From Brevundimonas sp. NIBR10 (GTDB lineage: Bacteria; Pseudomonadota; Alphaproteobacteria; Caulobacterales; Caulobacteraceae): a stretch of DNA of 64,000 bases. The stretch is taken from assembly GCF_027912515.1 (NCBI RefSeq), contig NZ_CP115464.1, positions 2,914,001 to 2,978,000 of the forward strand, given 5' to 3'. Under the pieces are notes generated by a model. The model ran no database searches, was not told the DNA's origin, and saw only the letters and a list, made by a program, of their open reading frames with translations. This document shows, in pieces, positions 1,065-12,064 of this stretch. Both the position numbers and the translations under genes were made by a program. Positions within the stretch are counted from its first letter, which is position 1. The number at the start of each line of letters is the position of its first letter.

Positions 1065-1361
1065 GCAGACATGGGTGTCTCCTTCAGTTGCGCTAGGACT
1101 AAGTTCACAGCGCTTTCCGGCGATCTCCTATCCGGAGCAATTGTGCAGCAATGAATGCGAAAGGCGTGCCTCGACATTGGCTGAATTCGGTCGACTGGCC
1201 GTCGATCGTTCGCGCAAGTCCTACCTGTTTACCTCTGCTGCAACCGTGGTCTTTGCCTGACTCAGGCTTTGTCGAGCCGATCTTGACCTGAATCAAGGTG
1301 TCGTCGTGCGCTTGACCTAAGGTGCGCCTGGCTCGATCGGGGCTGCGACGGGTTTGATGAT
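1065..1361. other. Intergenic region carrying the P-type ATPase promoter
   Basis: I see no convincing gene here. Short open frames on both strands lack ribosome sites and recognisable domains. The only identifiable element is the FNR-like box at 1283-1296. Confidence 0.5.
1283..1296 (+). promoter_or_regulatory. FNR-like box upstream of the P-type ATPase
   Basis: TTGAC-CTGA-ATCAA matches the TTGAT-N4-ATCAA consensus with one mismatch. Its centre is about 72 bp before the ATPase start, fitting a class II site around -41.5 with a short leader. Regulation by the Fnr-type protein at 10759-11520 is inferred. Confidence 0.6.
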
Positions 1362-3890
1362 GTGGACGTGACATGGCCCGGTCTCGATAAAGATGAGGCC
1401 GACCGACGGCTCCTGGCCGCGGGTCCGAACATTCCTTCGCCTGTGCACGCCCGCAGCCTGGTCAGAATTCTGCTTTCGACCCTGAGAGAACCAATGTTCC
1501 TTCTGCTGGTCGTTGCGGCCGGGCTATATCTGGCTCTGGGCAGTCTCGCCGAGGGTCTCTTTCTGACGCTTGCCGCACTCGGAACGATCAGTCTGGTCGT
1601 GGTGCAGCAAGCCCGGAGCGAAAGCGCTCTGAAGGCGCTGCGCGACCTGTCCGAGCCGACCGCCCGGGTCATGAGATCCGGTGTCGCGTGCACGCTCGCC
1701 ATCGACCGGCTGGTTCAGGGCGACATCCTGCTGGTGAGCGAGGGCCAACGGCTGCCCGTCGATGGTCGTCTTGTCGATGGCGACGTGCTGAGCGTCGATG
1801 AGTCCACCCTGTCGGGAGAGTCCGCCCCGGTCATCAAGACCGTTTGGCAGGCGACCTCGGATCACGGCGGCAGCGGAGACAGCGCCGCCCACGCCGTCTT
1901 TTCCGGCACGCTCGTCGTGTCCGGCCAGGGCGTGGTCGAAGTGCTGGAGACCGGCGCCCGGACGAGATTGGGACAGATCGGAACCTCACTGGCCGCCATT
2001 GGGCCTGACCGGACGCATCTGGAGAGATCGACGGGACGCCTGGTCGCCTTGTTCGGCGTTCTGGCGGTTGTGCTCAGCGCCACGGTCGTCCTGGCCTACG
2101 GGCTGATGCGGGGCGACTGGATCGAAGCCCTGCTCGCGGGCACTACCGTCGCCATCTCGCTCATTCCCGAAGAGTTCCCGACCGTCCTTGCCGTGTTCAT
2201 GGCGCTGGGCGCCTGGCGGCTGGCGCGCCATCAGGTTCTGGTACGGCGCGGCGCGGTGATCGAGACTCTGGGATCCGCCACCCTCTTGTGCGTCGACAAG
2301 ACCGGCACCCTGACGGAGAACCGGATGTCGGTGGCCGAGGTCTGGGTCGAAGGAAAGGGTGTCGACGCCTCGGCCGGCCCTTTGCCGCCCGATGCCGGTC
2401 TGGTCCTTGACGCGGCGGCCTTAGCAAGCGCGTCGCAGCCGACCGACCCGATGGACCGCGCCATTCGCGAGCGGGCGCCATCGACGGGCGGCGGGACATT
2501 GACCCGGGCCTGGCCGCTTGAAGCCAAGCGGATGGCCGTGATCCAGACATGGCGGCTTGCGGACGGCAGCCCGGCTGCTGCGGCCAAGGGGGCACCGGAG
2601 GCGATCTTCAGCCTGTGCAGGGCTTCGGAGAAGACCCTCGCGCCGGCAAGAGACGCTCTTGATGCGATGGCGGCCAGAGGGCTCCGCGTCCTTGGCGTTG
2701 CAACGGTCCGTCAGGCCGACGCTGGATTCACCGATCCGGATCAGGCCCTCTTCACCTTCATCGGGCTGATCGGCTTTCTCGATCCGGTGCGAGAGGATGT
2801 GCCGGGCACCTTGCAGGATGCGCGTCGCGCCGGAATCAGTGTGGCGATGATCACGGGCGACTACCCCGCCACTGCGCTCGAGATCGCCCGGCAGGCCGGC
2901 ATCGATGTGGGACCGGGCGTGATGACGGGAGACGAGATCGCGGCTTTGTCGCCCGGCGAACTTTCCGAACGCATCCGCATGGTCCGGGTTTTTGCTCGCA
3001 TCCAGCCTCAGCAGAAGCTGGCGCTGGTCCAAGCCTTCAAGGCGGATGGCGAGATCGTCGCCATGACAGGAGACGGGGTCAACGACGCGCCCGCGCTCCG
3101 GGCGGCCGACATCGGGATTGCCATGGGAAAACGGGGGACGGATGTCGCGCGGGAGGCGGCCGACATCGTCCTGATGGACGACAGTTTCGGTGCCATCGTC
3201 GGCGGGGTTCGCCTGGGCCGCCGGATCTTCGCCAATCTTCGCAAGGCGCTGACGTTCATCGTCGCAGTTCATGTGCCGCTGGCCGGACTGGCGCTGATCC
3301 CGATCCTGATGGGCGCGCCGCCGCTGCTTTTTCCGGCTCATGTCGTCTTCCTTCAACTGGTGATCAGTCCCGTCTGCTCTCTCGTCTTCGAGGCGGAGCC
3401 CAGCGAAGCTGACGCGATGAAGAAGCCGCCCCGTTCCGATACAGCGTCGCTGTTCGGCCCACTTCAGATCGCGTTCGGGGCCCTGCAGGGCCTGGTCATC
3501 CTGTCCGGGGTGCTCGGCTTCTATGTCTGGATGCTCGCTCAGGCACCGGAAACGGAGGCTCGCGCCGCGGCCTTCATCGCCCTTGCGATCGCGAACATGG
3601 TGCTGGCTCTGACGGACTCGGCCACGTCGGGCGTGTCTCTGTTCGATCCCCACCGCCGGATCTTCTGGCTGATTTGCGCCAGCGCAGCGACCGTTCTTGC
3701 GGTCTGCGTCTGCGTTCCCTTCGTCGAGGGACTGTTCCGGTTCGCCACGCCGTCTGGAGAAGACCTCTTCCTGGCGATGGCTGTGGCCGTTGTTAGCGGC
3801 GGCTGGGCCGGACCCTGGCGCTGGATCATGGGGTGGGCGAGGGCCAGGTCCACAAGACAGCAAGGGTCGCAAGCCGTTCTGGTCGGTTGA
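1362..3890 (+). CDS. Cation-transporting P-type ATPase (P2-like)
   Basis: This 842-residue integral membrane pump couples ATP hydrolysis to cation transport. The actuator motif reads SGES (about 151-154) instead of TGES. A membrane motif IPEEFP (268-273) is followed by the phosphorylation motif DKTGTLT with Asp312, and TGDGVNDAP (569-577) is the hinge. Hydrophobic pairs near 41-80, 225-280 and four to six segments after residue 630 fit ten membrane helices. There is no N-terminal heavy-metal domain and no CPC motif, so it belongs near Ca2+/Mg2+ or Na+/K+-type pumps and not the Cu/Zn P1B class; the ion cannot be told from sequence. The start is GTG at 1362; ribosome site weak. An FNR-like box precedes it, and such pumps are common in low-oxygen gene clusters. 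Confidence 0.9.
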   Translation: MDVTWPGLDKDEADRRLLAAGPNIPSPVHARSLVRILLSTLREPMFLLLVVAAGLYLALGSLAEGLFLTLAALGTISLVVVQQARSESALKALRDLSEPTARVMRSGVACTLAIDRLVQGDILLVSEGQRLPVDGRLVDGDVLSVDESTLSGESAPVIKTVWQATSDHGGSGDSAAHAVFSGTLVVSGQGVVEVLETGARTRLGQIGTSLAAIGPDRTHLERSTGRLVALFGVLAVVLSATVVLAYGLMRGDWIEALLAGTTVAISLIPEEFPTVLAVFMALGAWRLARHQVLVRRGAVIETLGSATLLCVDKTGTLTENRMSVAEVWVEGKGVDASAGPLPPDAGLVLDAAALASASQPTDPMDRAIRERAPSTGGGTLTRAWPLEAKRMAVIQTWRLADGSPAAAAKGAPEAIFSLCRASEKTLAPARDALDAMAARGLRVLGVATVRQADAGFTDPDQALFTFIGLIGFLDPVREDVPGTLQDARRAGISVAMITGDYPATALEIARQAGIDVGPGVMTGDEIAALSPGELSERIRMVRVFARIQPQQKLALVQAFKADGEIVAMTGDGVNDAPALRAADIGIAMGKRGTDVAREAADIVLMDDSFGAIVGGVRLGRRIFANLRKALTFIVAVHVPLAGLALIPILMGAPPLLFPAHVVFLQLVISPVCSLVFEAEPSEADAMKKPPRSDTASLFGPLQIAFGALQGLVILSGVLGFYVWMLAQAPETEARAAAFIALAIANMVLALTDSATSGVSLFDPHRRIFWLICASAATVLAVCVCVPFVEGLFRFATPSGEDLFLAMAVAVVSGGWAGPWRWIMGWARARSTRQQGSQAVLVG

Positions 3891-3902
3891 TCCGTCCTGT
3901 CG

Positions 3903-3916
3903 TTGATCTGTCTCAA
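3903..3916 (+). promoter_or_regulatory. FNR-like box upstream of the phosphoglucomutase/GH65 operon
   Basis: TTGAT-CTGT-CTCAA has one mismatch to the consensus and sits in a wider inverted repeat, CGTTGA-N6-TCAACG. It is 27 bp before the ATG at 3943, which would place transcription start very close to the start codon. Confidence 0.55.
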
Positions 3917-3942
3917 CGACAGGCGGTGCCGACCCCGACAGC

Positions 3943-4731
3943 ATGAAGTCCGAAGGACCGACCCATGCCCAAGCGCCCGCCCATCCTGACGTCGCATTGA
4001 CCGCCGCCAGCCCTTATCGCGACCACGCCGGCCCCAGGACGGCGATCATCTTCGATGTCGATGGCGTGTTGCTGCGTTCGCCGCACGAGCGGGCCTGGCG
4101 CGACGCGCTGGCGGGGTTCGCCGATCCGGCGCGATTCACACCAGCGCTTTATCGTTCAGAGGTCGCGGGCAAGCCGAGACTCGACGGTGCGCTTGCGGCG
4201 CTTTTGGTCCTGGGCGTGCCGGACGCCAGCGAGCGTGCAGCAGACTACGCCGCTCACAAGCAGGCCCGGCTGGAAGCCATGATGGCGGAGGGAAGGGTCG
4301 AGGCCTTTCCAGATGCTCTACGCCTTGTCCTCGCGCTCCGAACGCGCGGCATCCCGATGGCGGCGGCGTCCTCGTCGCGGAATGCGACCGCGATGATGCG
4401 CGAAATCCGCCTCGACGACGGCGAAACCTTGCTGGACGCCCTGACCGCCGACGTCTCGGGCCGCCCCGTCTCGCATGGCAAGCCGGATCCCGACCTATTC
4501 CTGCTCGCTGCCGAGGCGTTGAAGGGGCGGCCCCGCCATTGCGTCGTGATCGAGGATGCGGTCGTCGGCATCGAGGCGGCCCGTCGGGGCGGAATGCGCG
4601 TCATCGGGTTGGCCCGCTCAGGCGAAGCCGATCAGCTGGCTTCGGCGGGCGCGGACATGGTCGTCGAAGATCTGGATGAGATCGACGTCGAGGCCCTCGC
4701 GAACGGCCAGCTCGAAAGACATGCCGCATGA
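3943..4731 (+). CDS. pgmB: HAD-family beta-phosphoglucomutase-like protein
   Basis: The 262-residue product has an N-terminal extension of about 34 residues, then the HAD nucleophile motif FDVDGVLL (nucleophile Asp near residue 38), a cap region, the AASSSRN motif (motif II), the lysine in HGKPDPDLFLLA (motif III) and VIEDAVVGIEAA (motif IV). This set is that of beta-phosphoglucomutase and related phosphatases, which interconvert beta-glucose 1-phosphate and glucose 6-phosphate in the cytoplasm. The next gene, a GH65 phosphorylase, overlaps by four bases (ATGA) and would produce the beta-glucose 1-phosphate, which strongly favours the mutase over a simple phosphatase. The long N-terminus may mean a later start, but no better ATG is evident. 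Confidence 0.82.
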   Translation: MKSEGPTHAQAPAHPDVALTAASPYRDHAGPRTAIIFDVDGVLLRSPHERAWRDALAGFADPARFTPALYRSEVAGKPRLDGALAALLVLGVPDASERAADYAAHKQARLEAMMAEGRVEAFPDALRLVLALRTRGIPMAAASSSRNATAMMREIRLDDGETLLDALTADVSGRPVSHGKPDPDLFLLAAEALKGRPRHCVVIEDAVVGIEAARRGGMRVIGLARSGEADQLASAGADMVVEDLDEIDVEALANGQLERHAA

Positions 4732-7040
4732 CGAGGAATCCACCGCCCGACAACGAGTTCGCGCCGACGCTCGACCCGGCCTGGCGTCTCGAGGCCTTGG
4801 GTTACGATGCCTTGCGCGAAAGCAGCCGGCAGTCGCGCTTCGCACTCAGCAACGGCTTTCTGGGTGTGCGCGGGGAGCGGCCGTTCATCGAGGCCGACCG
4901 CTGGGTTTCGCCGTCGAGGACCCTGGTGGCGGGGCTTTTCGACACGGCCAACACGCCGGGTGCGGTCCCCCGGCTCGTCCCGGCCCCGGACTGGCTCCGG
5001 GTTCGGCTGATCTCGCCGGGGGGACCGATGACCCACGAGCCGGCGGGCGATCCATCCCATGCATTGAGCCTCGATATGCAGCGGGGGCTTCTCCAGACGA
5101 CCTGTCATCACGCCAATGCCGATATCAGCCTGCGGGTTCGTGAACTTCGTCTGGTGTCGGTGAGCCGACGATCCCTGGGTCTGCAGCGGCTGCGGATCGA
5201 TGTGCTTGAGGGCGAAGGGACCGTCAGCCTCATCGCCGGGATCGGCAGCGCGGATCCGGCCCTGATAGCCTTCGATGAAGAAGCGGGTCCGCGGGTCTGG
5301 CGGACCTGCCAATCGCTCTGGCGGCTTGCGATGGCGCTTTCCAATTCACTTACGATCGATGGCGTGGTCCAGCCCGAAGGTCCCGCCACAACGCCGGGCG
5401 GGACGTGGACCTGGTCCGCCCCGTGCGGCCAGAGCGTCACCTTCACACGATTGGTCGTTTTCGGCCGGGGCGGCCCTGAGGTGGAGGATCTCGCCACTGA
5501 AACCAAGGACGTTTGCGATCAAGTCACGCGGCTGGGCTGGAGGGCCGCGCTGGCGGCCCATGAGGCGGCGTGGTCCATGCGTATGGCGGCCAGCGACGTG
5601 GTGATCGAGGGCGACCCGGCGGCACAGCAGGCTGTGCGGTTCGCCGTCTTCCATCTGAACAGCGCCGCCAATCCCGACGACGAGACCGTTTCGATCGCCG
5701 CCCGGGCCCTGACCGGCGACGACTACGCCGGTCACGTCTTCTGGGACACCGAAATCTTCCTGATCCCGTTCTACTGCCTGACCTGGCCGGAGGCGGCCCG
5801 GGCCCTGCTCATGTACCGGTTTCACACCCTGGGCGAGGCCCGCGCCAAGGCGAAACGGCTCGGATGGCGCGGCGCGCTCTACGCCTGGGAATCCGCCGAT
5901 ACCGGCGCCGAGGCGACGCCGGATCACACCGTCGGCCCCGACCGGCAGGTGCTCGCCATCCTGTGCGGGATGCAGGAACAGCACATCAGCGCCGATGTCG
6001 CCTGGGCAGTCTGGCAGTACTGGATGGCGACGGGCGACGAGGCGTTTCTTCAAGACGCCGGCGCCGAGATCATCCTCGAGACGGCCCGGTTCTGGGAAAG
6101 TCGCGCTGCCCTGGAAGCGGATGGACGCCGTCACATCCGTGGCGTGATCGGGCCCGACGAGTATCATGAGACGATCGATGACAATGCCTTCACCAATGGA
6201 ATGGCCCGGTGGAACATCGAGCGAGGGCTGGAGATCGCGGGTCTGATGCAAAGCCGCTGGCCGGATCACTGGGCGGAGTTGGCCGGACGGCTCGACCTCG
6301 GACCGGACGAACTGGATTGCTGGGCTGAGGCGTCACGGACCATCGAGACAGGTCTCAATCCCGACACCGGCCTGTTCGAACAGTTCGAGGGCTACAACGG
6401 GCTTGAGACCATCGAACTCAATGCCTACGCGGGTCGGTCGGTGCCGATGGATGTCGTGCTCGGGCGCGACCGGACGGCCAGATCGCAGGTCATCAAACAG
6501 GCGGACGTGGTCGCCCTTCTGGCGCTTCTGCCGGAGGCTTATTCGACCGGGATCGTCGAGACCAATTTCGACCATTACGAGCCGAGGTGCGGCCATGGCA
6601 GCTCTCTGAGCACAGCGATGCACGGCCTGGTCGCTGCGCGGCTGGGGCAGACCGAAAGAGCACTCGACCTGTTCCAGCGAACAGGAACGATCGATCTCGG
6701 CGACGACAAGGCCGCGATCGCCGGCGGCATCCACATCGCTGCTCAGGGCGGCGTCTGGATGATGGCGGTGCTGGGCTTCGCAGGCGTGTCTCTGCGGGAC
6801 GACGGCGTGGCGCTCAGTCCCTGCATCCCGCAGGAATGGACAGCCCTTCGGATTCCATTGCAGTGGCGCGGACGCCGTCTGTCGATCGCTATCGGGGCCG
6901 GATCGATCCGAATTCTTCTCGAGTCGGGCGAACCGATGACGGTTCAACTGAGAGCTGTTCGCTACGGGCTGGAGCAGGGACGGGCGCTTGTCATCGACCT
7001 GTCGAGCGGGCCGGCCGATGCCGCCGCTGCGCAATCATGA
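4728..7040 (+). CDS. GH65 family disaccharide phosphorylase
   Basis: The 770-residue protein follows the GH65 order: an N-terminal beta-sandwich with FALSNGFLGVRGE, an (alpha/alpha)6 barrel, and a short C-terminal beta domain. The general acid is Glu478 in GPDEYHETIDDNAFTN. The phosphate-binding HGSSLS motif (CGHGSSLSTAMHG) and the KQADVV segment are present, which separates phosphorylases from GH65 hydrolases. Such enzymes split maltose, trehalose, kojibiose or nigerose with phosphate, giving beta-glucose 1-phosphate. Which disaccharide is used cannot be told. It is sandwiched between the mutase gene and a DUF1275 gene, each joined by an ATGA overlap, so the three are one operon. No signal peptide is seen; it acts in the cytoplasm. 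Confidence 0.88.
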   Translation: MTRNPPPDNEFAPTLDPAWRLEALGYDALRESSRQSRFALSNGFLGVRGERPFIEADRWVSPSRTLVAGLFDTANTPGAVPRLVPAPDWLRVRLISPGGPMTHEPAGDPSHALSLDMQRGLLQTTCHHANADISLRVRELRLVSVSRRSLGLQRLRIDVLEGEGTVSLIAGIGSADPALIAFDEEAGPRVWRTCQSLWRLAMALSNSLTIDGVVQPEGPATTPGGTWTWSAPCGQSVTFTRLVVFGRGGPEVEDLATETKDVCDQVTRLGWRAALAAHEAAWSMRMAASDVVIEGDPAAQQAVRFAVFHLNSAANPDDETVSIAARALTGDDYAGHVFWDTEIFLIPFYCLTWPEAARALLMYRFHTLGEARAKAKRLGWRGALYAWESADTGAEATPDHTVGPDRQVLAILCGMQEQHISADVAWAVWQYWMATGDEAFLQDAGAEIILETARFWESRAALEADGRRHIRGVIGPDEYHETIDDNAFTNGMARWNIERGLEIAGLMQSRWPDHWAELAGRLDLGPDELDCWAEASRTIETGLNPDTGLFEQFEGYNGLETIELNAYAGRSVPMDVVLGRDRTARSQVIKQADVVALLALLPEAYSTGIVETNFDHYEPRCGHGSSLSTAMHGLVAARLGQTERALDLFQRTGTIDLGDDKAAIAGGIHIAAQGGVWMMAVLGFAGVSLRDDGVALSPCIPQEWTALRIPLQWRGRRLSIAIGAGSIRILLESGEPMTVQLRAVRYGLEQGRALVIDLSSGPADAAAAQS

Positions 7041-7687
7041 TGCACTATGACCATCGGATCCGCGCACTCGCCGTCTGCTTCTCGTGTGTCGCCGGCTATG
7101 TCGATGCCGTAGGCTTTCTGCTGACCGGCGGCTTCTTCGTCTCCTTCATGAGCGGCAACTCGACACGACTGGGGATCGGAGTCGCGGAGAACACCTCTGA
7201 TGCGGGATTCGCCGCTGTTCTGATCGTCACCTTTGTTGTGGGTGTCATGCTGGGCACCGTCGTCGGACGGTTGGCGGGGCGCCATCGGAGGCCGGCGGTT
7301 CTGGGGCTGGTGACACTTCTCCTGGCGGCGGCGCTTCTCCTGAGTTGGACAGGAGAAGGCGTATTCATCGTGATCCCGATGGTGCTCGCCATGGGCGCGG
7401 AAAACACGGTGTTTGCGGAGGACGGCGAAGTCAGGATCGGATTGACCTATATGACCGGAACCCTGGTCAAACTGGGGAAACGGCTCACGGCGGCGTTGCT
7501 CGGCGGGGACCGCTATGGATGGGTGCCTTTCCTCCTGCTCTGGACGGGATTGCTCGCGGGCGCAGTCGGGGGTGCCCTGGCCTACGGCGCGCTAGGCATG
7601 AACGCCCTGGTCGGGGCTGTCGGCATCATGGCGACGCTGACGACCATCACCATCGTCCTCGGCCCCGATCTCAAGCCTGGGGCGTAA
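7037..7687 (+). CDS. DUF1275 (YoaK-type) membrane protein
   Basis: The 216-residue product is a six-helix membrane protein. The opening CVAGYVDAVGFLL and FVSFMSGNSTRLG are the hallmark of DUF1275/YoaK, whose role is unknown. GAENTVF and LTYMTGTLVKLG are further family motifs in the second half. The start ATG (7037) overlaps the GH65 stop; a second ATG follows immediately. The 3' end overlaps the convergent dehydrogenase gene by 17 bp. Its place in the phosphorylase operon could mean sugar or small-solute movement, but this is inference. Confidence 0.85.
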   Translation: MMHYDHRIRALAVCFSCVAGYVDAVGFLLTGGFFVSFMSGNSTRLGIGVAENTSDAGFAAVLIVTFVVGVMLGTVVGRLAGRHRRPAVLGLVTLLLAAALLLSWTGEGVFIVIPMVLAMGAENTVFAEDGEVRIGLTYMTGTLVKLGKRLTAALLGGDRYGWVPFLLLWTGLLAGAVGGALAYGALGMNALVGAVGIMATLTTITIVLGPDLKPGA

Positions 7688-8648
7688 GGGGGACGGCGTC
7701 CGTCGTCAGGGCGGCGAGGGCTGTCCTCAGGATGCTGGCGGACGCCGCCAGAGCGGCCGTCTCATCCTCGTCGAGTTCCGGAGTAAGGATCCTCTCGACA
7801 CCCTTCGCGCCCAGAATGCAGGGCAGGCTCAGGCAGACATCCGACAGGCCGTATTGCCCGGTCAGCAAGGTCGAGACCGGAAGAACAGCCCGCTCGTCGC
7901 GAATGATGGCCTCACAAATGCGAACGATCGCGGTCGCCACGCCCCAGGAGGTGTAGCCCTTGCCCTTGACGATGTCATAGCCGGCGTCGCGGACCTGTCG
8001 CGCGATCGCAGCCTGGTCGAGGACTCGTGAACCAGCGCAGAACTGTTGAAGCGTCTGTCCGCCGATGCCGACCGTGGAGAAGGCTGCGACCTCGCTGTCT
8101 CCGTGCTCGCCAAGGACGAAGGCTTCGATGGAGGCGGGGGATACCTCCACCGCCTCGGACAAAGTCTGTTTCAGGCGGCTGGTGTCGAGCAGAGTGCCGG
8201 TTCCAATCACTTGAGCGGGCTTGAGGCCGGATCGCCGCACGGCCACGAATGTCATCAGGTCGACCGGGTTGGACGACACCACGATGAGGCCGTGAAAGCC
8301 TGCGGTCATCAGCGAGCCCACGCACTCGGCCACGATCGCGGCGCTTTCGGCGGCCACCGACAGGCGGCTCTGAGTCCCGTGTGTGACGCCCCCGGCTGTG
8401 ATGACGGCAATGGCCGCGCCTGCGGCGTCAGCGTAGTCGCCCGCCCGGACGCGCACAGGCCGTGCGAGCGCGTTGGCGTCTGCGATGTCTGCGGCCTCTG
8501 CTTCGGCCAGGGCGCGATTGCTGTCGATGAGGACGATCTCGTGAAACAGCGCGCGCAGCATGATGGCGTAAGCCGCCGCCGCACCGACATGGCCCGCGCC
8601 GATGATCGCAATGCGGCCTTGGGCAGGACCGACCGGTTCAGATGTCAT
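7671..8648 (-). CDS. L-lactate/2-hydroxyacid dehydrogenase (LDH/MDH superfamily)
   Basis: The 325-residue NAD-dependent enzyme has the Rossmann motif IIGAGHVGAAAA (about 15-26), an acidic residue ending strand 2 (LIDSN), SSNPVDLMT, LDTSR (Asp155, Arg158) and the catalytic histidine His182 in GEHGDSE. These mark a lactate/malate dehydrogenase. The substrate-loop residue that is Gln in LDH and Arg in MDH aligns to Thr89 (TAGGVTHGTQSR, with Arg95 as the catalytic loop arginine), so the natural 2-oxo acid may be neither pyruvate nor oxaloacetate. Its ATG overlaps the stop of the upstream histidine kinase gene (ATGA), making a two-gene operon. In the surrounding FNR-type cluster a fermentative NADH-oxidising role is plausible. 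Confidence 0.82.
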   Translation of the reverse strand: MTSEPVGPAQGRIAIIGAGHVGAAAAYAIMLRALFHEIVLIDSNRALAEAEAADIADANALARPVRVRAGDYADAAGAAIAVITAGGVTHGTQSRLSVAAESAAIVAECVGSLMTAGFHGLIVVSSNPVDLMTFVAVRRSGLKPAQVIGTGTLLDTSRLKQTLSEAVEVSPASIEAFVLGEHGDSEVAAFSTVGIGGQTLQQFCAGSRVLDQAAIARQVRDAGYDIVKGKGYTSWGVATAIVRICEAIIRDERAVLPVSTLLTGQYGLSDVCLSLPCILGAKGVERILTPELDEDETAALAASASILRTALAALTTDAVPLTPQA

Positions 8649-9688
8649 GCCGGCGGATCCGATGCTGGAGGTCGGCAGACGATAGAAACGCGTACGCCGG
8701 GTTTGGCATCGGCGATGTCGATCGTCGCTCCGAGCTGATTGGCGAGCGCCTGGACGATGCCGGTGCCCAGACCCGGTTTGGCGGCCTGTGAGCCGTCGGG
8801 CATCCCGACGCCGTCGTCGCAGACCGTCAGGGTCCACCCCTCGCCATGCGAGCGGTAGTCGACATCGATCTCACCGTCGCGATCATTCGGGAAGGCATGC
8901 TTGAGCGCATTGATCACAAGTTCGGTGACAATCAGGCCAAGGCTGACAGATTTTCCCGATGAGGCAATGCTGTCGTCGACGGTGACCTTCAGGCTGAGCT
9001 GGTTGTGGTCGCGGATCATCGAGTCGCCGATGCTGCGGCACAGGTCGGTAAAATAGCCCCGGAGTTCGACGTCACCGAGATCCGAACTGGCCAGTTGGCG
9101 CTGCACGGCTGCCACCGACATGATCCTCTGGTGGGCGTCGCGCAGGTGATCGCGGCTCTCGTCCGAGCCCACCTTGCGCACCCCCTGCATGAGCACGCTG
9201 GCGATGATCTGCAGGCTGTTGGCTGTTCGGTGCTGGACCTCCTGCACCAGGATCGCCTTGTCGCGGATCAGGTCGTCCTTCTGACGTTCGCTGGCGCGTG
9301 CGTCAGTCACATCCTGAATGGACAGAAGCAGTCTGACGCCATGCCCGTCGCCATAATCCAGGCGCTGAGCATTCAGGACCAGCCGGCGCAGACCACGCGA
9401 GGACTTGAGATCCATCTCGTAAGCCTGGATCGACGCTTGACTGTAGGCTGTCGCCTTCAGCAGCGACCAGAGCTGAGGCACCTTCCATTCGCCCGTGCCC
9501 AAGTCGACCAGTCGCGCGCCAGGAATATCCTCAGGTCCGACATTGAAGCTTTCCAGAAAGCTCCGGCTGGCGGCCAGGACACACAGATCGCCGTCCAGCA
9601 TTAGCACCGGGGCGACCGAGGCAGAGATGAGTGACAGTGCGAGATTCAGGGAAACATCAGAGGGCGGAGCGAGGAGTGTCGTCGGCAT
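8645..9688 (-). CDS. PAS-containing sensor histidine kinase (HisKA_2/HWE type)
   Basis: From the ATG at 9688 the protein has 347 residues. An N-terminal PAS-like domain (ALSLISASVAPVLMLDGD onward) and a SIQDVTD linker lead to the phosphoacceptor EVQHRTANSLQIIASVL, followed by an ATPase domain with the N-box ELVINALKHAF and G-boxes DDGVGMP and GLGTGIV. The HRxxNSLQ phospho-site is that of the HisKA_2 group common in alphaproteobacteria, often linked to general stress or light signalling. No membrane helices or partner response regulator are seen. An alternative ATG at 9763 would add 25 low-complexity Gly/Pro residues across a GC-rich inverted repeat; I prefer 9688, without a strong ribosome site. 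Co-transcribed with the dehydrogenase. Confidence 0.82.
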   Translation of the reverse strand: MPTTLLAPPSDVSLNLALSLISASVAPVLMLDGDLCVLAASRSFLESFNVGPEDIPGARLVDLGTGEWKVPQLWSLLKATAYSQASIQAYEMDLKSSRGLRRLVLNAQRLDYGDGHGVRLLLSIQDVTDARASERQKDDLIRDKAILVQEVQHRTANSLQIIASVLMQGVRKVGSDESRDHLRDAHQRIMSVAAVQRQLASSDLGDVELRGYFTDLCRSIGDSMIRDHNQLSLKVTVDDSIASSGKSVSLGLIVTELVINALKHAFPNDRDGEIDVDYRSHGEGWTLTVCDDGVGMPDGSQAAKPGLGTGIVQALANQLGATIDIADAKPGVRVSIVCRPPASDPPA

Positions 9689-9791
9689 GGTAGGCCCACC
9701 CCGGGGGCCGTTACTCCCGCCGGGGGCCCGGCCCGGTGGGCCCGATCTCGAGGCGGTCATCATCAGTTAGTCCGATCGACGCGCACGCGCC

Positions 9792-9805
9792 TTGATCCAG
9801 ATCAC
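9792..9805 (+). promoter_or_regulatory. FNR-like box between the kinase and the DUF883-like gene
   Basis: TTGAT-CCAG-ATCAC has one mismatch to the FNR consensus. It is 55 bp upstream of the gene at 9860 and lies in the divergent region shared with the histidine kinase/dehydrogenase operon, so it could serve both. Confidence 0.6.
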
Positions 9806-9859
9806 CGACTTCGCCCCACCGATCCGCTTGGATGGCGCGTCATCCAAAGGAGCCTCCCC

Positions 9860-10165
9860 ATGACCCATGCCGCCCTGAAGACCCTGAGCCGCGACCTTCA
9901 TGATTTCGCCGACGAAGCCACCGACCATCTGAAGGACGCCGCGAAGAAGACTGGCTCCGAAGCGAGCGACGCCATCGCGCGATCGACCAAGGCCATCACC
10001 CGCGCCGCCGATCGTCTGCGTGACGAGGCCGAAAATTCTGCGGCGACAACGCGCGCCCAGGTTTCTGAGACCGTCCGGGCCTATCCCGTCAGCACAAGCG
10101 TGGTGACCGGCGCGATCGTGGCCCTGCTCGCCACCTTCGCCCTGGTCCGTCTCTCGCAGTCCTGA
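9860..10165 (+). CDS. Small DUF883/ElaB-like tail-anchored protein
   Basis: The 101-residue protein is amphipathic and helical for its first 70 residues (many Ala, Asp, Glu, Lys, Arg; probable coiled coil) and ends in a single hydrophobic helix (VVTGAIVALLATFALVRL) after a Tyr-Pro. This is the layout of the DUF883/ElaB/YqjD family, small inner-membrane proteins induced in stress or stationary phase, some of which bind ribosomes. AAAGGAG lies about 8 bases before the ATG, a strong ribosome site. An FNR-like box is 55 bp upstream. Family membership rests on layout more than on a sharp motif. Confidence 0.68.
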   Translation: MTHAALKTLSRDLHDFADEATDHLKDAAKKTGSEASDAIARSTKAITRAADRLRDEAENSAATTRAQVSETVRAYPVSTSVVTGAIVALLATFALVRLSQS

Positions 10166-10167
10166 CC

Positions 10168-10683
10168 TCAGAACAGGCGGGCCTCGGCGCTGACTGCGTC
10201 TGGGCCCGCTGCGGCATCGCCAAGAGAGAAGCATTCGGTCTGGCTTCGCCCGGCCGATGCGCTGATGGCGCAGATCAATTCTGGCTTCAGGCAGATGATC
10301 GCGATCGAGCTGGTCGCCGGACAATAGACGCTGACCTGGGGCCAACGCGCGAACATCAGGCGGTTAAGGCGCTCGACCTCGGCCGGGTCGCTGACTTCGA
10401 CCGCGCGCGCTGCCATGGAGACGCCGACCGTACCGCCGACCTCCATGTTCGAATGGATCGCGATCGAGACACGTGGGTCGGCTTGAAGATTGGCCAGCTT
10501 CTGGCTCTCGCGACCGGTAACGAAATACAGGTTCAGGCCTTCGTTCACATAGCCGACGGTGGTCACCTGGGGCCAGCCATCGGGCCGATTGGTCGCCAGG
10601 CTCATCAGCCGCTCATGCTCCAGCAATCGCGCGATGGTTTCCACTGCCGCACCGTGAATGGGCGGAGAGGGTTCAACTGTCAT
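10168..10683 (-). CDS. Pyridoxamine 5'-phosphate oxidase-like flavin protein
   Basis: The 171-residue product begins with LLEHERLMSLATNRPDGWPQVTTVGYV and continues with LYFVTGRESQKLANLQADPRVSIAI, the conserved half of the PPOX-like FMN-binding split barrel family (general stress protein 26 relatives). The exact substrate is unknown; members bind FMN, F420 or heme. It is not the biosynthetic PdxH, which is longer and carries different active-site motifs. An FNR-like half-perfect site lies 52 bp upstream on this strand. It lies tail to tail with the DUF883-like gene, two bases apart. Confidence 0.75.
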   Translation of the reverse strand: MTVEPSPPIHGAAVETIARLLEHERLMSLATNRPDGWPQVTTVGYVNEGLNLYFVTGRESQKLANLQADPRVSIAIHSNMEVGGTVGVSMAARAVEVSDPAEVERLNRLMFARWPQVSVYCPATSSIAIICLKPELICAISASAGRSQTECFSLGDAAAGPDAVSAEARLF

Positions 10684-10734
10684 GGGGGGCGCTCCGGCGA
10701 TCAGCCGATCTACCGCTAGCTAAGGTCGACAACC

Positions 10735-10748
10735 TTGATCTGGCGCAA
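10735..10748 (-). promoter_or_regulatory. Weak FNR-like box upstream of the PPOX-like gene
   Basis: Read on the minus strand, TTGCG-CCAG-ATCAA has one perfect half and two mismatches in the other. The position (52 bp before the start) matches the other sites in this cluster, which is the main reason to list it. Confidence 0.4.
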
Positions 10749-10758
10749 TTTCCGACGG

Positions 10759-11520
10759 TCAGACCTCTCCGGAGGCGTGCTGACGAAGCCGTTCCGGGCG
10801 TTCGACGATGAGTTCATTCTGCGACGGTATGGAGATCAGACCCTTGACCTTCATTCGGGTCAGCACGCGGCTGACCGTCTCGATCGTCAGCCCCAGATAG
10901 TCGGCGATCTCGCCGCGCTTCATCGGCAACCGCACATGTCCCGGCGCGCTGGGGCGGGCAGGGTCGTGACCCGGCAGGTCGAGGAGGAAAGAGGCCATCC
11001 GCTCGATCGCGGTCTTGCGGCCCAGCAGCAGCATCTGGTTCTGCGCCGCCGCCAGCTCGTGCGACGTCCGGTGAAGCAGCATATGCTCGAGCGGTGGCGA
11101 GCTCGCGACCAGAACGCGGAACGGACCTTTGCGGAAACGGCAGACAGTCGAAACCTCCATCGCCTCGGCCGAGAAGACATAGGTCTCGCCGATCGCCAGG
11201 CCCAGAAAGTCGCCGGCGAAGAGGAACCCGGTGATCTGTCGGCGCCCGTCCGGCAGAAGCTTGTAGACCCTCAGCGAGCCGCTTGTGATGTTGAAGACAT
11301 GCGGCGCAAGCTCGCCCTCGCGGATCAGGACGGCACCGGATTTGAGCTTGATGACCTCGGCCAGGCCGCCGAGTCGCTGAAGGTCCGGGTCCTCAGCAGC
11401 ACCGCAAACGCTCAGCGCACGTGCCCCGCAGCTGTCGCAATCGCTGCTTTTCGGTCGATCGACACAGCCTGACAGGGGCGGGGGGCGCGGCGCAAGCGAA
11501 GGCTTCAGAGCAACGACCAT
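10759..11520 (-). CDS. Fnr-type (Crp/Fnr family) oxygen-sensing regulator
   Basis: The 253-residue protein has a cNMP-like sensor fold with four candidate cluster cysteines: Cys28, Cys31 and Cys39 in a CX2CX7C arrangement plus Cys127. This is the FnrL/FnrN/AadR pattern for an oxygen-labile [4Fe-4S] cluster. The C-terminal helix-turn-helix RGEIADYLGLTIETVSRVLTRM carries the E-SR residues that read the TTGAT half-site. It is expected to activate genes when oxygen is low. An FNR-like box lies 44 bp upstream of its own start, suggesting autoregulation, and five more boxes flank neighbouring genes. The ATG at 11520 has no strong ribosome site nearby. Confidence 0.88.
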   Translation of the reverse strand: MVVALKPSLAPRPPPLSGCVDRPKSSDCDSCGARALSVCGAAEDPDLQRLGGLAEVIKLKSGAVLIREGELAPHVFNITSGSLRVYKLLPDGRRQITGFLFAGDFLGLAIGETYVFSAEAMEVSTVCRFRKGPFRVLVASSPPLEHMLLHRTSHELAAAQNQMLLLGRKTAIERMASFLLDLPGHDPARPSAPGHVRLPMKRGEIADYLGLTIETVSRVLTRMKVKGLISIPSQNELIVERPERLRQHASGEV

Positions 11521-11563
11521 GCCCCAGTGTGGACTAGAATGCAGGGTTTACCGAGTCGGTTTA

Positions 11564-11577
11564 TTGATTTGAGTCAA
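11564..11577 (-). promoter_or_regulatory. FNR-like box upstream of the fnr-type gene
   Basis: TTGAT-TTGA-GTCAA matches the consensus with one mismatch and is 44 bp upstream of the regulator's start; autoregulation is inferred. Confidence 0.6.
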
Positions 11578-11624
11578 ATATGATCGCAAAACGGCTAAGC
11601 TAAAAGTTGTGAGTTTGGTGTGAA

Positions 11625-11999
11625 TCACCGAGATGAATGCGTCTGAATGCTTTTAAGATAGGCGATCAAATCTGAATTTTCCTCTGCGGACATGATGAAC
11701 TCGGGCATCGCCGCGTGCGCTGTGTCGATCCCTTCGGCAAAGGCCTCGGCCAGGTCGTCGACCGGATAGCGGAGAGTGAGGTCCCTGAAATGCGGTGCGC
11801 TCGCCAGCGGGCTTTTATCCGTCCAGTTGATCGCGTGGCAGCCGGCGCAGTTCGCTCTGGCATAGGCCGCTCCGCGCTGCTCCGTAGTGATGTTCGGAAT
11901 CGCGGCAGCGACCAATGACTCCCGGGCAACCGGAACGATCGGCTGAACGGCACAGCTCGGCGCCCCGATGAGCAAGGCGAGGGCGACAAGATACTTCAT
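11625..11999 (-). CDS. Small exported c-type cytochrome
   Basis: The 124-residue product starts with a hydrophobic signal (MKYLVALALLIGAPSC), possibly a lipoprotein signal ending at Cys16, and carries one heme site, CAGCH, in ANCAGCHAIN. A methionine in AMPEFIMSAEE is a likely distal ligand, and the C-terminal helix DLIAYLKSIQ is typical of class I cytochromes c. It would shuttle electrons in the periplasm. A perfect FNR box is 52 bp upstream, indicating expression under low oxygen. Longer open sequence upstream in the same frame lacks a signal peptide and crosses the FNR box, so ATG 11999 is chosen. Confidence 0.85.
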   Translation of the reverse strand: MKYLVALALLIGAPSCAVQPIVPVARESLVAAAIPNITTEQRGAAYARANCAGCHAINWTDKSPLASAPHFRDLTLRYPVDDLAEAFAEGIDTAHAAMPEFIMSAEENSDLIAYLKSIQTHSSR

Positions 12000-12050
12000 G
12001 GACGGGCTCCTGACCTGCAGCCAACCTCCCATGCAGGTCCGTCCAGGTCG

Positions 12051-12064
12051 TTGATCAGGATCAA
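12051..12064 (-). promoter_or_regulatory. Perfect FNR box upstream of the cytochrome c gene
   Basis: TTGAT-CAGG-ATCAA matches the FNR/FixK consensus exactly. Its near edge is 52 bp upstream of the cytochrome start codon, as expected for a -41.5 activator site. Confidence 0.8.

What the first reader, a model, noticed from the sequence alone, without database searches (positions are those of the whole stretch)
1283..12064. Low-oxygen island: six FNR-like boxes around an Fnr-type regulator gene
Seen: FNR-like sites at 1283, 3903, 9792, 10735, 11564 and 12051, the last a perfect TTGAT-N4-ATCAA, lie 27-66 bp upstream of P-type ATPase, mutase/GH65/DUF1275, DUF883-like (and possibly kinase/dehydrogenase), PPOX-like, the regulator itself and cytochrome c. 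Known: the regulator has the CX2CX7C [4Fe-4S] pattern of FnrL/FnrN. Inference: one regulon for life under low oxygen, combining phosphorolytic sugar use, an NADH-oxidising dehydrogenase, ion pumping and electron transfer. I know of no description of this combined set.
Basis: partly seen in the sequence, partly recalled or inferred. Interest (0 to 1): 0.75.

Follow-up and report, generated by a model that had tools for sequence, protein, structure and literature searches.

The report
FNR-controlled low-oxygen gene island, Brevundimonas
A 12-kb stretch of a Brevundimonas chromosome carries an iron-sulphur oxygen-sensor regulator gene and six of its switch sites in front of the neighbouring genes; the switches are conserved in related species and are set up to turn those genes on when oxygen runs low, in a group of bacteria reported to lack this kind of sensor.

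Summary
All six boxes are at the stated coordinates. In the 4.0-Mb Brevundimonas genome, TTGAT-N4-ATCAA with at most one mismatch occurs 68 times; 5 lie in this 10.8-kb island, against 0.18 expected. Each box recurs in front of the same gene in some other Brevundimonas, though not in every one. In 61 promoters aligned on the box, a TAnnnT -10 element peaks 23 nt downstream (z 7.7), the spacing of class II FNR activation. These look like working switches, not chance palindromes. The regulator keeps all four cluster cysteines.

Best reading: an autoregulated low-oxygen fermentation and standby island under a duplicated FNR. The sister copy lies beside hemN and cbb3 oxidase genes. New here: four-cysteine FNR genes in 33 of 61 Brevundimonas genomes (a 34th is cut by a contig end), FixK-type genes in 11, with no overlap; published work reports only FixK in Caulobacterales. 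The island's kinds of genes are otherwise mostly familiar low-oxygen targets. DUF883, beta-phosphoglucomutase and strict lactate specificity are not supported. No expression or binding data exist.

The parts
1283..1296 (+). FNR box TTGACCTGAATCAA upstream of the P-type ATPase; -10 TAAGGT at 1318-1323
   Evidence: identical box in front of the orthologue in G076, G035 and G122
1362..3890 (+). P2-type cation ATPase (842 aa), cation unknown
   Evidence: Pfam E1-E2_ATPase, Cation_ATPase_N and _C; nearest solved relatives are Ca2+-ATPases such as lmo0841; below every NCBIfam equivalog cut-off listed
3903..3916 (+). FNR box TTGATCTGTCTCAA before the HAD mutase; it overlaps an 11-bp inverted repeat (3896-3923)
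   Evidence: box before the mutase in L017, L019, L020, L026, none in L112
3943..4731 (+). beta-phosphoglucomutase-like HAD protein; the true start is probably downstream of 3943 (in-frame TTG at 3997)
4728..7040 (+). GH65 protein, phosphorylase-type motifs
   Evidence: Pfam GH65 N, m and C domains; best PDB match kojibiose phosphorylase 3wiq; HGSSLS in 4 of 4 copies read, GPDEYHE in 2 and GPDEYHD in 2
7037..7687 (+). DUF1275 membrane protein (ATG at 7037 or 7040)
   Evidence: Pfam DUF1275
7671..8648 (-). L-lactate-dehydrogenase-like 2-hydroxyacid dehydrogenase; ATG overlaps the kinase stop (ATGA)
   Evidence: TIGR01771 above cut-off
8645..9688 (-). HWE/HisKA_2 sensor histidine kinase with weak PAS match; ORF open from 9763, start probably 9688
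   Evidence: called orthologues start near the matching Met
9792..9805 (.). FNR box TTGATCCAGATCAC shared by the 101-aa gene (+) and the kinase operon (-)
   Evidence: 14 of 14 bases identical in 8 of 8 aligned genomes, with TA of the kinase-side -10 at +23/+24 also invariant
9860..10165 (+). 101-aa protein with a hydrophobic C-terminus, family unassigned
   Evidence: no match over a cut-off in Pfam or NCBIfam; conserved in relatives
10168..10683 (-). PPOX/PNPOx_N flavin-binding-type protein
   Evidence: Pfam PNPOx_N
10735..10748 (-). weak FNR box (two mismatches; TTGCGCCAGATCAA on the - strand) before the PPOX gene
   Evidence: one-mismatch boxes at the same place in L021, L022, L025, L026; none at that cut-off in the closer L017-L020 and L024; -10 TAGATC at +23
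10759..11520 (-). FNR-type regulator (FnrL/FnrN kind), C28-X2-C31-X7-C39 plus C127, ETVSR recognition helix
11564..11577 (-). FNR box before the regulator gene (autoregulation)
   Evidence: boxes before the regulator in L018, L019, L021, L023, L025, L026; not found there at one mismatch in L017, L020, L022, L024, L029
11628..11999 (-). cytochrome c, single haem
   Evidence: Pfam Cytochrom_C
12051..12064 (-). perfect FNR box before cytochrome c
   Evidence: perfect box at the same place in L017, L018, L019, L024, L029

Best explanation
This is a self-contained FNR regulon island. Shown by sequence: an FNR-type regulator gene with the four cluster cysteines, boxes in front of seven predicted promoters (ATPase, mutase-GH65-DUF1275, 101-aa gene, kinase-dehydrogenase, PPOX, regulator, cytochrome c), conservation of each box in at least some relatives, and -10-like elements at class II spacing. 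Inferred: under low oxygen the [4Fe-4S] regulator dimerises, binds the boxes at about -41.5 and recruits RNA polymerase to switch all units on, including its own gene, while oxygen destroys the cluster and switches them off. Inferred physiology: survival at low oxygen, with phosphorolysis of an alpha-glucoside to hexose phosphate (saving ATP), NADH reoxidation by a 2-hydroxyacid dehydrogenase, ion pumping, and a small cytochrome c feeding a terminal oxidase. The regulator is an accessory copy; the second FNR lies beside hemN-cco, and the two probably share sites.
For: Clustering: 5 of 68 genome-wide sites in 0.27% of the genome. Density in 11 island-type loci, chosen by the protein and not by boxes: 38 sites in 36,609 intergenic positions against 3 in 176,325 coding positions. 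Boxes in front of the same genes in relatives; the 9792 box is invariant in 8 of 8 aligned genomes. TAnnnT score at +23 is 1.68 of 3 against a mean of 0.54 (sd 0.15) at other offsets and a maximum elsewhere of 1.03, over 61 promoters in 12 groups; in the window all seven promoter directions score at least 2 of 3 at +22 or +23. Four cysteines in 27 of 29 regulator rows read, the window copy included; the two misses are the distant L043 and L044. Second FNR beside HemN, CcoN, CcoP and CcoG, with a strict box before hemN.
Against: No expression or binding data. Box 10735 has two mismatches, and the closer relatives L017-L020 and L024 lack a one-mismatch box there. The regulator box is missing at that cut-off in 5 of 11 island-type loci. 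A GH65-mutase pair in L112 has no box in front, and 9 of 16 other ATPase loci have none within 140 bp. Box 3903 overlaps an 11-bp perfect inverted repeat (fold z -3.9) just after the ATPase stop, so it may also, or only, act as an RNA hairpin; its -10 (CAGCAT) overlaps the listed ATG. Regulator promoters have weak -10 elements (island type 1,1,1,2,2,0,2; second type 1,1,1,1,1,0). Substrate assignments of GH65, HAD mutase and dehydrogenase are tentative. A perfect match is not proof by itself: both other perfect genome sites (333731, 723031) lie inside called genes.
Confidence: 0.85

Rival explanations
1. The island is an FNR regulon, but the sister FNR beside hemN-cco is the main controller in the cell and the island copy is a minor amplifier.
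For: Both regulators carry four cysteines and the ETVSR helix (sequences), and both loci carry the same box type. All 7 genomes with an island-type copy (79% or more) among 61 also hold another FNR copy. The ATPase box is kept in G035, which has only a 63% copy at the threshold used. In Sphingopyxis granuli one of two fnr genes is dominant (PMC7713065, passages read).
Against: The island regulator clade is conserved (14-row clade, support 100/98) and keeps its neighbours, which suggests a non-redundant role.
Confidence: 0.35
2. The boxes are sites of another CRP/FNR-family protein that senses NO or another signal, so the island is not an oxygen regulon.
For: FNR, FixK and DNR share very similar DNA targets (PMC2908626, section 9 part 1). 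The genome has two further CRP-type proteins at E below 1e-10 and weaker ones.
Against: Those two proteins lack the N-terminal CX2CX7C and the ETVSR helix when read; the nearest regulator gene is a four-cysteine FNR.
Confidence: 0.07
3. Chance palindromes in a GC-rich genome.
For: Matches with up to two mismatches are common in the window (27), and four of the 11 strict sites genome-wide lie inside called genes.
Against: About 60-fold intergenic enrichment, permutation control, conservation and -10 spacing.
Confidence: 0.01

Closest known systems
FnrL core regulon of Rhodobacter sphaeroides and other Alphaproteobacteria (Dufour 2010, PMC2908626)
   Same: FNR regulator, same kind of box, regulator gene, hemN and cbb3 genes, a P-type ATPase and USP among predicted core targets (section 9 part 1 read). 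The second FNR locus of this genome matches this pattern.
   Different: The Table 1 shown there lists no GH65, HAD mutase, DUF1275, PPOX or lactate dehydrogenase, and its P-type ATPase is the heavy-metal kind. A passage says Caulobacter lacks an FNR-type regulator.
FixLJ-FixK regulon of Caulobacterales (Tsoy 2016, PMC4999443)
   Same: FNR/FixK-type DNA motif; cco, cyd, hemN targets; autoregulation in some species.
   Different: FixK lacks the cluster cysteines. The paper states Caulobacteriales have only FixK (four genomes; Brevundimonas absent from the main text; passages and section 24 read, supplements not seen). Here the regulators are four-cysteine FNR, and no match to a Brevundimonas FixK was found in this genome at E 1e-60.
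Microoxic response of Bradyrhizobium diazoefficiens (PMC6515984)
   Same: USP, a PPOX-family protein, a P-type ATPase and an alcohol dehydrogenase are in its table of microoxia-responsive products (passages read); relatives of this island also carry USP and ADH genes.
   Different: Its P-type ATPase in the passage is the copper pump FixI; the terms lactate dehydrogenase and glycosyl hydrolase do not occur in the text.
Two-FNR system of Sphingopyxis granuli TFA (PMC7713065)
   Same: Two four-cysteine FNR-type proteins in one alphaproteobacterium.
   Different: Nitrate-respiring sphingomonad (passages read); its target list was not compared in full.

Membership tests
FNR/FnrL/FnrN regulator | N-terminal CX2CX7C plus an internal fourth cysteine | tested here: met
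   C28, C31, C39, C127 in the window copy; 27 of 29 rows read have all four, the window copy included; misses are distant L043 and L044
FNR/FnrL/FnrN regulator | CRP-type HTH with E-SR recognition residues | tested here: met
   HTH_Crp_2; ETVSR at 214 in 145 of 149 aligned proteins, ETISR in 2
FNR/FnrL/FnrN regulator | NCBIfam FnrL or FixK equivalog cut-off | tested here: not met
   FnrL 146.7 and FixK 149.4 bits, cut-off 300 for both; so FNR-type, not filed as an FnrL or FixK equivalog
FNR/FnrL/FnrN regulator | binds an oxygen-labile [4Fe-4S] cluster | not testable with these tools
   needs purified protein
FixK | no N-terminal cluster cysteines | tested here: not met
   cysteines present
Class II FNR-activated promoter | box centre about 41.5 bp upstream of the start, i.e. 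-10 at +22 to +23 after the box | tested here: met
   peak at +23, z 7.7; promoter geometry rule is recalled knowledge; real start sites not mapped
GH65 phosphorylase | three GH65 domains and phosphorylase-type motifs | tested here: met
   that HxSSLS marks phosphate binding is recalled
GH65 phosphorylase | phosphorolysis of a named disaccharide | not testable with these tools
   below both NCBIfam GH65 cut-offs listed
beta-phosphoglucomutase | NCBIfam bPGM or PGMB cut-off | tested here: not met
   86.8 of 189.4 and 118.4 of 153.35 bits
L-lactate dehydrogenase | TIGR01771 cut-off | tested here: met
   328.9 against 303.55 bits
L-lactate dehydrogenase | Gln at the pyruvate-specifying position (Gln102, recalled) | tested here: not met
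   Thr in the alignment to the best PDB L-LDH, 2e37, and in 6 of 6 copies aligned
DUF883 (ElaB/YqjD) | Pfam DUF883 match | tested here: not met
   no match at E 10

The most novel reading that the evidence does not exclude
Brevundimonas shows an oxygen-regulator swap inside one genus. Some species use an Fe-S FNR, others a cysteine-free FixK, never both in the 61 genomes sampled, while boxes in front of shared low-oxygen genes are kept in some members of both groups (the P-type ATPase box within 140 bp is present in FixK genomes G012 and G032, though not in G006, G018 or G021). In one FNR lineage the regulator duplicated and built a rearranging island that puts phosphorolytic sugar use, NADH disposal, stress proteins and in some species an alternative oxidase under direct oxygen control. 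If so, the published statement that Caulobacterales have FixK only does not hold for this genus, and the genus is a natural test of how regulons survive replacement of their regulator.
Probability: 0.45. Interest if true: 0.6.

Novelty: new variant of a known kind. Interest (0 to 1): 0.45.

Why it matters
It extends four-cysteine FNR oxygen control to Caulobacterales, where one regulon study reports only FixK and another no FNR in Caulobacter, and offers closely related species that differ in regulator but share boxes. It also predicts that a genus usually regarded as aerobic (recalled) keeps an oxygen-controlled fermentation and standby module, and names the promoters to test.

Tried and rejected
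The listing of the 68 one-mismatch sites shows 54 distinct places; the other 14 are not listed (one of them, before the second regulator, was seen in L054). DUF883 was tested and rejected. Alternative oxidase as a marker of the island was tested: present in 20 of 61 genomes, only 4 of which hold an island-type regulator, and no match in this genome (the tool warns that nothing rang in its controls, but the same model rings in relatives). So it is an occasional passenger. A chance origin was tested and rejected. Site 11615 (two mismatches) near the regulator was only displayed.

Literature: Brevundimonas+FNR+low oxygen+regulon gave 0 papers; Brevundimonas+FixK+oxygen gave 6, listing and abstract starts seen only; searches showed no description of this gene set in the listings. 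The library is open-access PMC only.

My own mistakes found on checking: the group I labelled ccoN is cytochrome bd subunit I (cydA) in L032, the one locus tested, with a divergent ABC transporter gene. So in other species the second FNR type lies near cydA, not shown near cco; the statistics do not depend on the label. My checkpoint note says the second copy is always cco-linked; that was shown for this genome only. I first counted five strict sites in genes; it is four. The 62-aa and 1806-aa entries of my gene caller are artefacts; the latter runs through masked bases and had no Pfam match. The caller also extended cytochrome c over the 12051 box, so that box is counted as coding. On these corrections I lowered the novel reading from 0.5 to 0.45.

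Dropped rows: one search left 10 of 61 doubtful or divergent rows out of its column counts; one search used 61 promoters chosen by me from boxes near orthologous genes, divergent sides included.
Full report
What was checked. The window is C1:2914001-2978000 of a 4.006-Mb single-contig genome. The named relatives of the regulator are mostly Brevundimonas, and a B. subvibrioides protein is 92% identical.

Chance. Genome-wide, TTGAT-N4-ATCAA with at most one mismatch occurs 68 times. Five lie in 1283-12064, against 0.18 expected (P 1.5e-6; about 5.5e-4 corrected for 371 windows). The stricter TTGAY-N4-RTCAA occurs 11 times: three here, four between genes elsewhere, four inside called genes. In 11 loci fetched by regulator similarity alone, boxes occur 38 times in 36,609 intergenic positions and 3 times in 176,325 coding positions; the other 19 orders of the half-site give at most 3 against 41 in the same loci. 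In 15 loci of the second paralogue type the figures are 29 in 26,049 and 6 in 254,553.

Conservation of each box, misses included. Cytochrome c: perfect box about 50 bp upstream in L017, L018, L019, L024 and L029. The 101-aa gene and kinase: all 14 bases and the TA of the kinase-side -10 are invariant in 8 of 8 aligned genomes. Regulator: a box before it in 6 of 11 island-type loci, none at one mismatch in the other 5. Mutase: box in L017, L019, L020, L026, none in L112. PPOX: one-mismatch boxes at the same place in L021, L022, L025, L026 but not in L017-L020 or L024, so the window's two-mismatch site looks like a decayed version. ATPase: of 131 genomes, 16 besides this one have a match at E 1e-200; a box lies within 140 bp of the gene in 7 of 16 (identical in G076, G035 and G122; near matches in L096, L099, L101, L103), and 9 have none that close, though L100 and L104 have a perfect one about 200 bp upstream.

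Promoter geometry. Aligning 61 promoters on the box, a TAnnnT -10 element peaks at +23 (score 1.68 of 3; other offsets mean 0.54, sd 0.15, maximum 1.03 at +18). A box centred at -41.5 puts the -10 at just this distance (class II FNR geometry, recalled). Every window promoter scores at least 2 of 3 at +22 or +23, including the kinase side of the 9792 box. This supports activation and suggests that the 9792 box works both ways. The weakest groups are the regulator genes themselves. The predicted start near 3951 means the mutase ATG at 3943 cannot serve this promoter; the next in-frame start is TTG 3997. The kinase start is then 9688, in line with orthologues. The dehydrogenase ATG (8648) overlaps the kinase stop, so it belongs to the same unit.

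The regulator. C28, C31, C39 and C127 are present in 27 of 29 rows read, the window copy included. Nearest solved relatives are FixK2 and an FNR. It is below the FnrL and FixK equivalog cut-offs, so I call it FNR-type. The genome has a second copy (64% identical) beside HemN, CcoN, CcoP and CcoG, a standard FNR neighbourhood, with a strict box between regulator and hemN. In L032 the second type lies a few kb from cydA instead. Island-type copies form one clade (14 rows, support 100/98). Copies at least 79% identical occur in 7 of 61 genomes, all 7 of which hold another FNR copy.

FNR against FixK within the genus. Of 61 genomes, 30 have a match to this regulator at E 1e-60 and 4 more lie just above that threshold. 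Four cysteines were read in 33 of these 34; the copy in G058 is cut by a contig end. FixK-type proteins occur in 11 of 61, as 12 copies; three were read and lack the cysteines. The overlap is 0 (hypergeometric 3e-5, not corrected for kinship). The other 16 genomes have neither at these thresholds; three of them have weak matches (L126-L128) without the four cysteines. In L098, L104 and L105 the ATPase gene sits beside fixK, but without a box within 140 bp; the FixK genomes G012 and G032 do have one. One regulon study states that Caulobacteriales have FixK only (PMC4999443, passages and section 24), another that Caulobacter lacks FNR (PMC2908626, passages); Brevundimonas does not occur in either main text.

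The gene set. Relatives carry further genes in the same islands: USP, nitroreductase, acetyl-CoA hydrolase/transferase, DUF6544, BON, alternative oxidase, VIT1, cytochrome b561, zinc alcohol dehydrogenase, in changing combinations. GH65 keeps HGSSLS in 4 of 4 copies and GPDEYHE or GPDEYHD in 2 each, and its best solved relative is kojibiose phosphorylase, so phosphorolysis is likely but the sugar is unknown. The dehydrogenase passes the L-LDH model but has Thr at the specificity position in 6 of 6 copies.

Verdict. A real, conserved, FNR-activated low-oxygen island: a new variant of a known kind. The surprise is less the gene list than the presence of duplicated four-cysteine FNR in Caulobacterales and its separation from FixK within one genus. 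Oxygen control of these genes remains a strong prediction, not a shown fact.

Noticed in passing
window 9690-9757, - strand: The predicted 5' leader of the kinase transcript carries a conserved GC-rich stretch (GAGATCGGGCCC-N3-GGGCC) that is kept even where a different (BON) gene follows the promoter; L023 has paired changes (GACCC/GGGTC) in the possible stem. Not folded.
   Followed up: partly
window 3896-3923: Box 3903 overlaps a perfect 11-bp inverted repeat right after the ATPase stop codon (fold -25.7 kcal/mol for 60 nt, z -3.9); it may be a hairpin that ends or stabilises the ATPase message.
   Followed up: partly
L017, L019, L020: In relatives the mutase and second cytochrome c ATG lies about 33-38 nt after the box, about where the message should start, so these may be leaderless messages.
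   Followed up: no
L017:13363-14088: An alternative oxidase gene (Pfam AOX, E 8.5e-85) lies downstream of the FNR-boxed kinase promoter in L017, L023, L024 and L029, possibly putting a quinol oxidase under FNR control.
   Followed up: partly
L055:2817-7609 (C1:286013 box): A strict FNR-like box lies between an AhpC/TSA-ArsR pair and a metallo-beta-lactamase, sulphur transport and BLH-phosphatase/flavoprotein gene row that looks like sulphide handling.
   Followed up: partly
L021, L022, L026: Brevundimonas mediterranea carries three FNR paralogues of the island clade within about 71 kb, plus a fourth copy on another contig.
   Followed up: no
L032:12407-15801: A perfect box lies between divergent cydA and ABC-transporter genes near the second FNR type.
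   Followed up: partly
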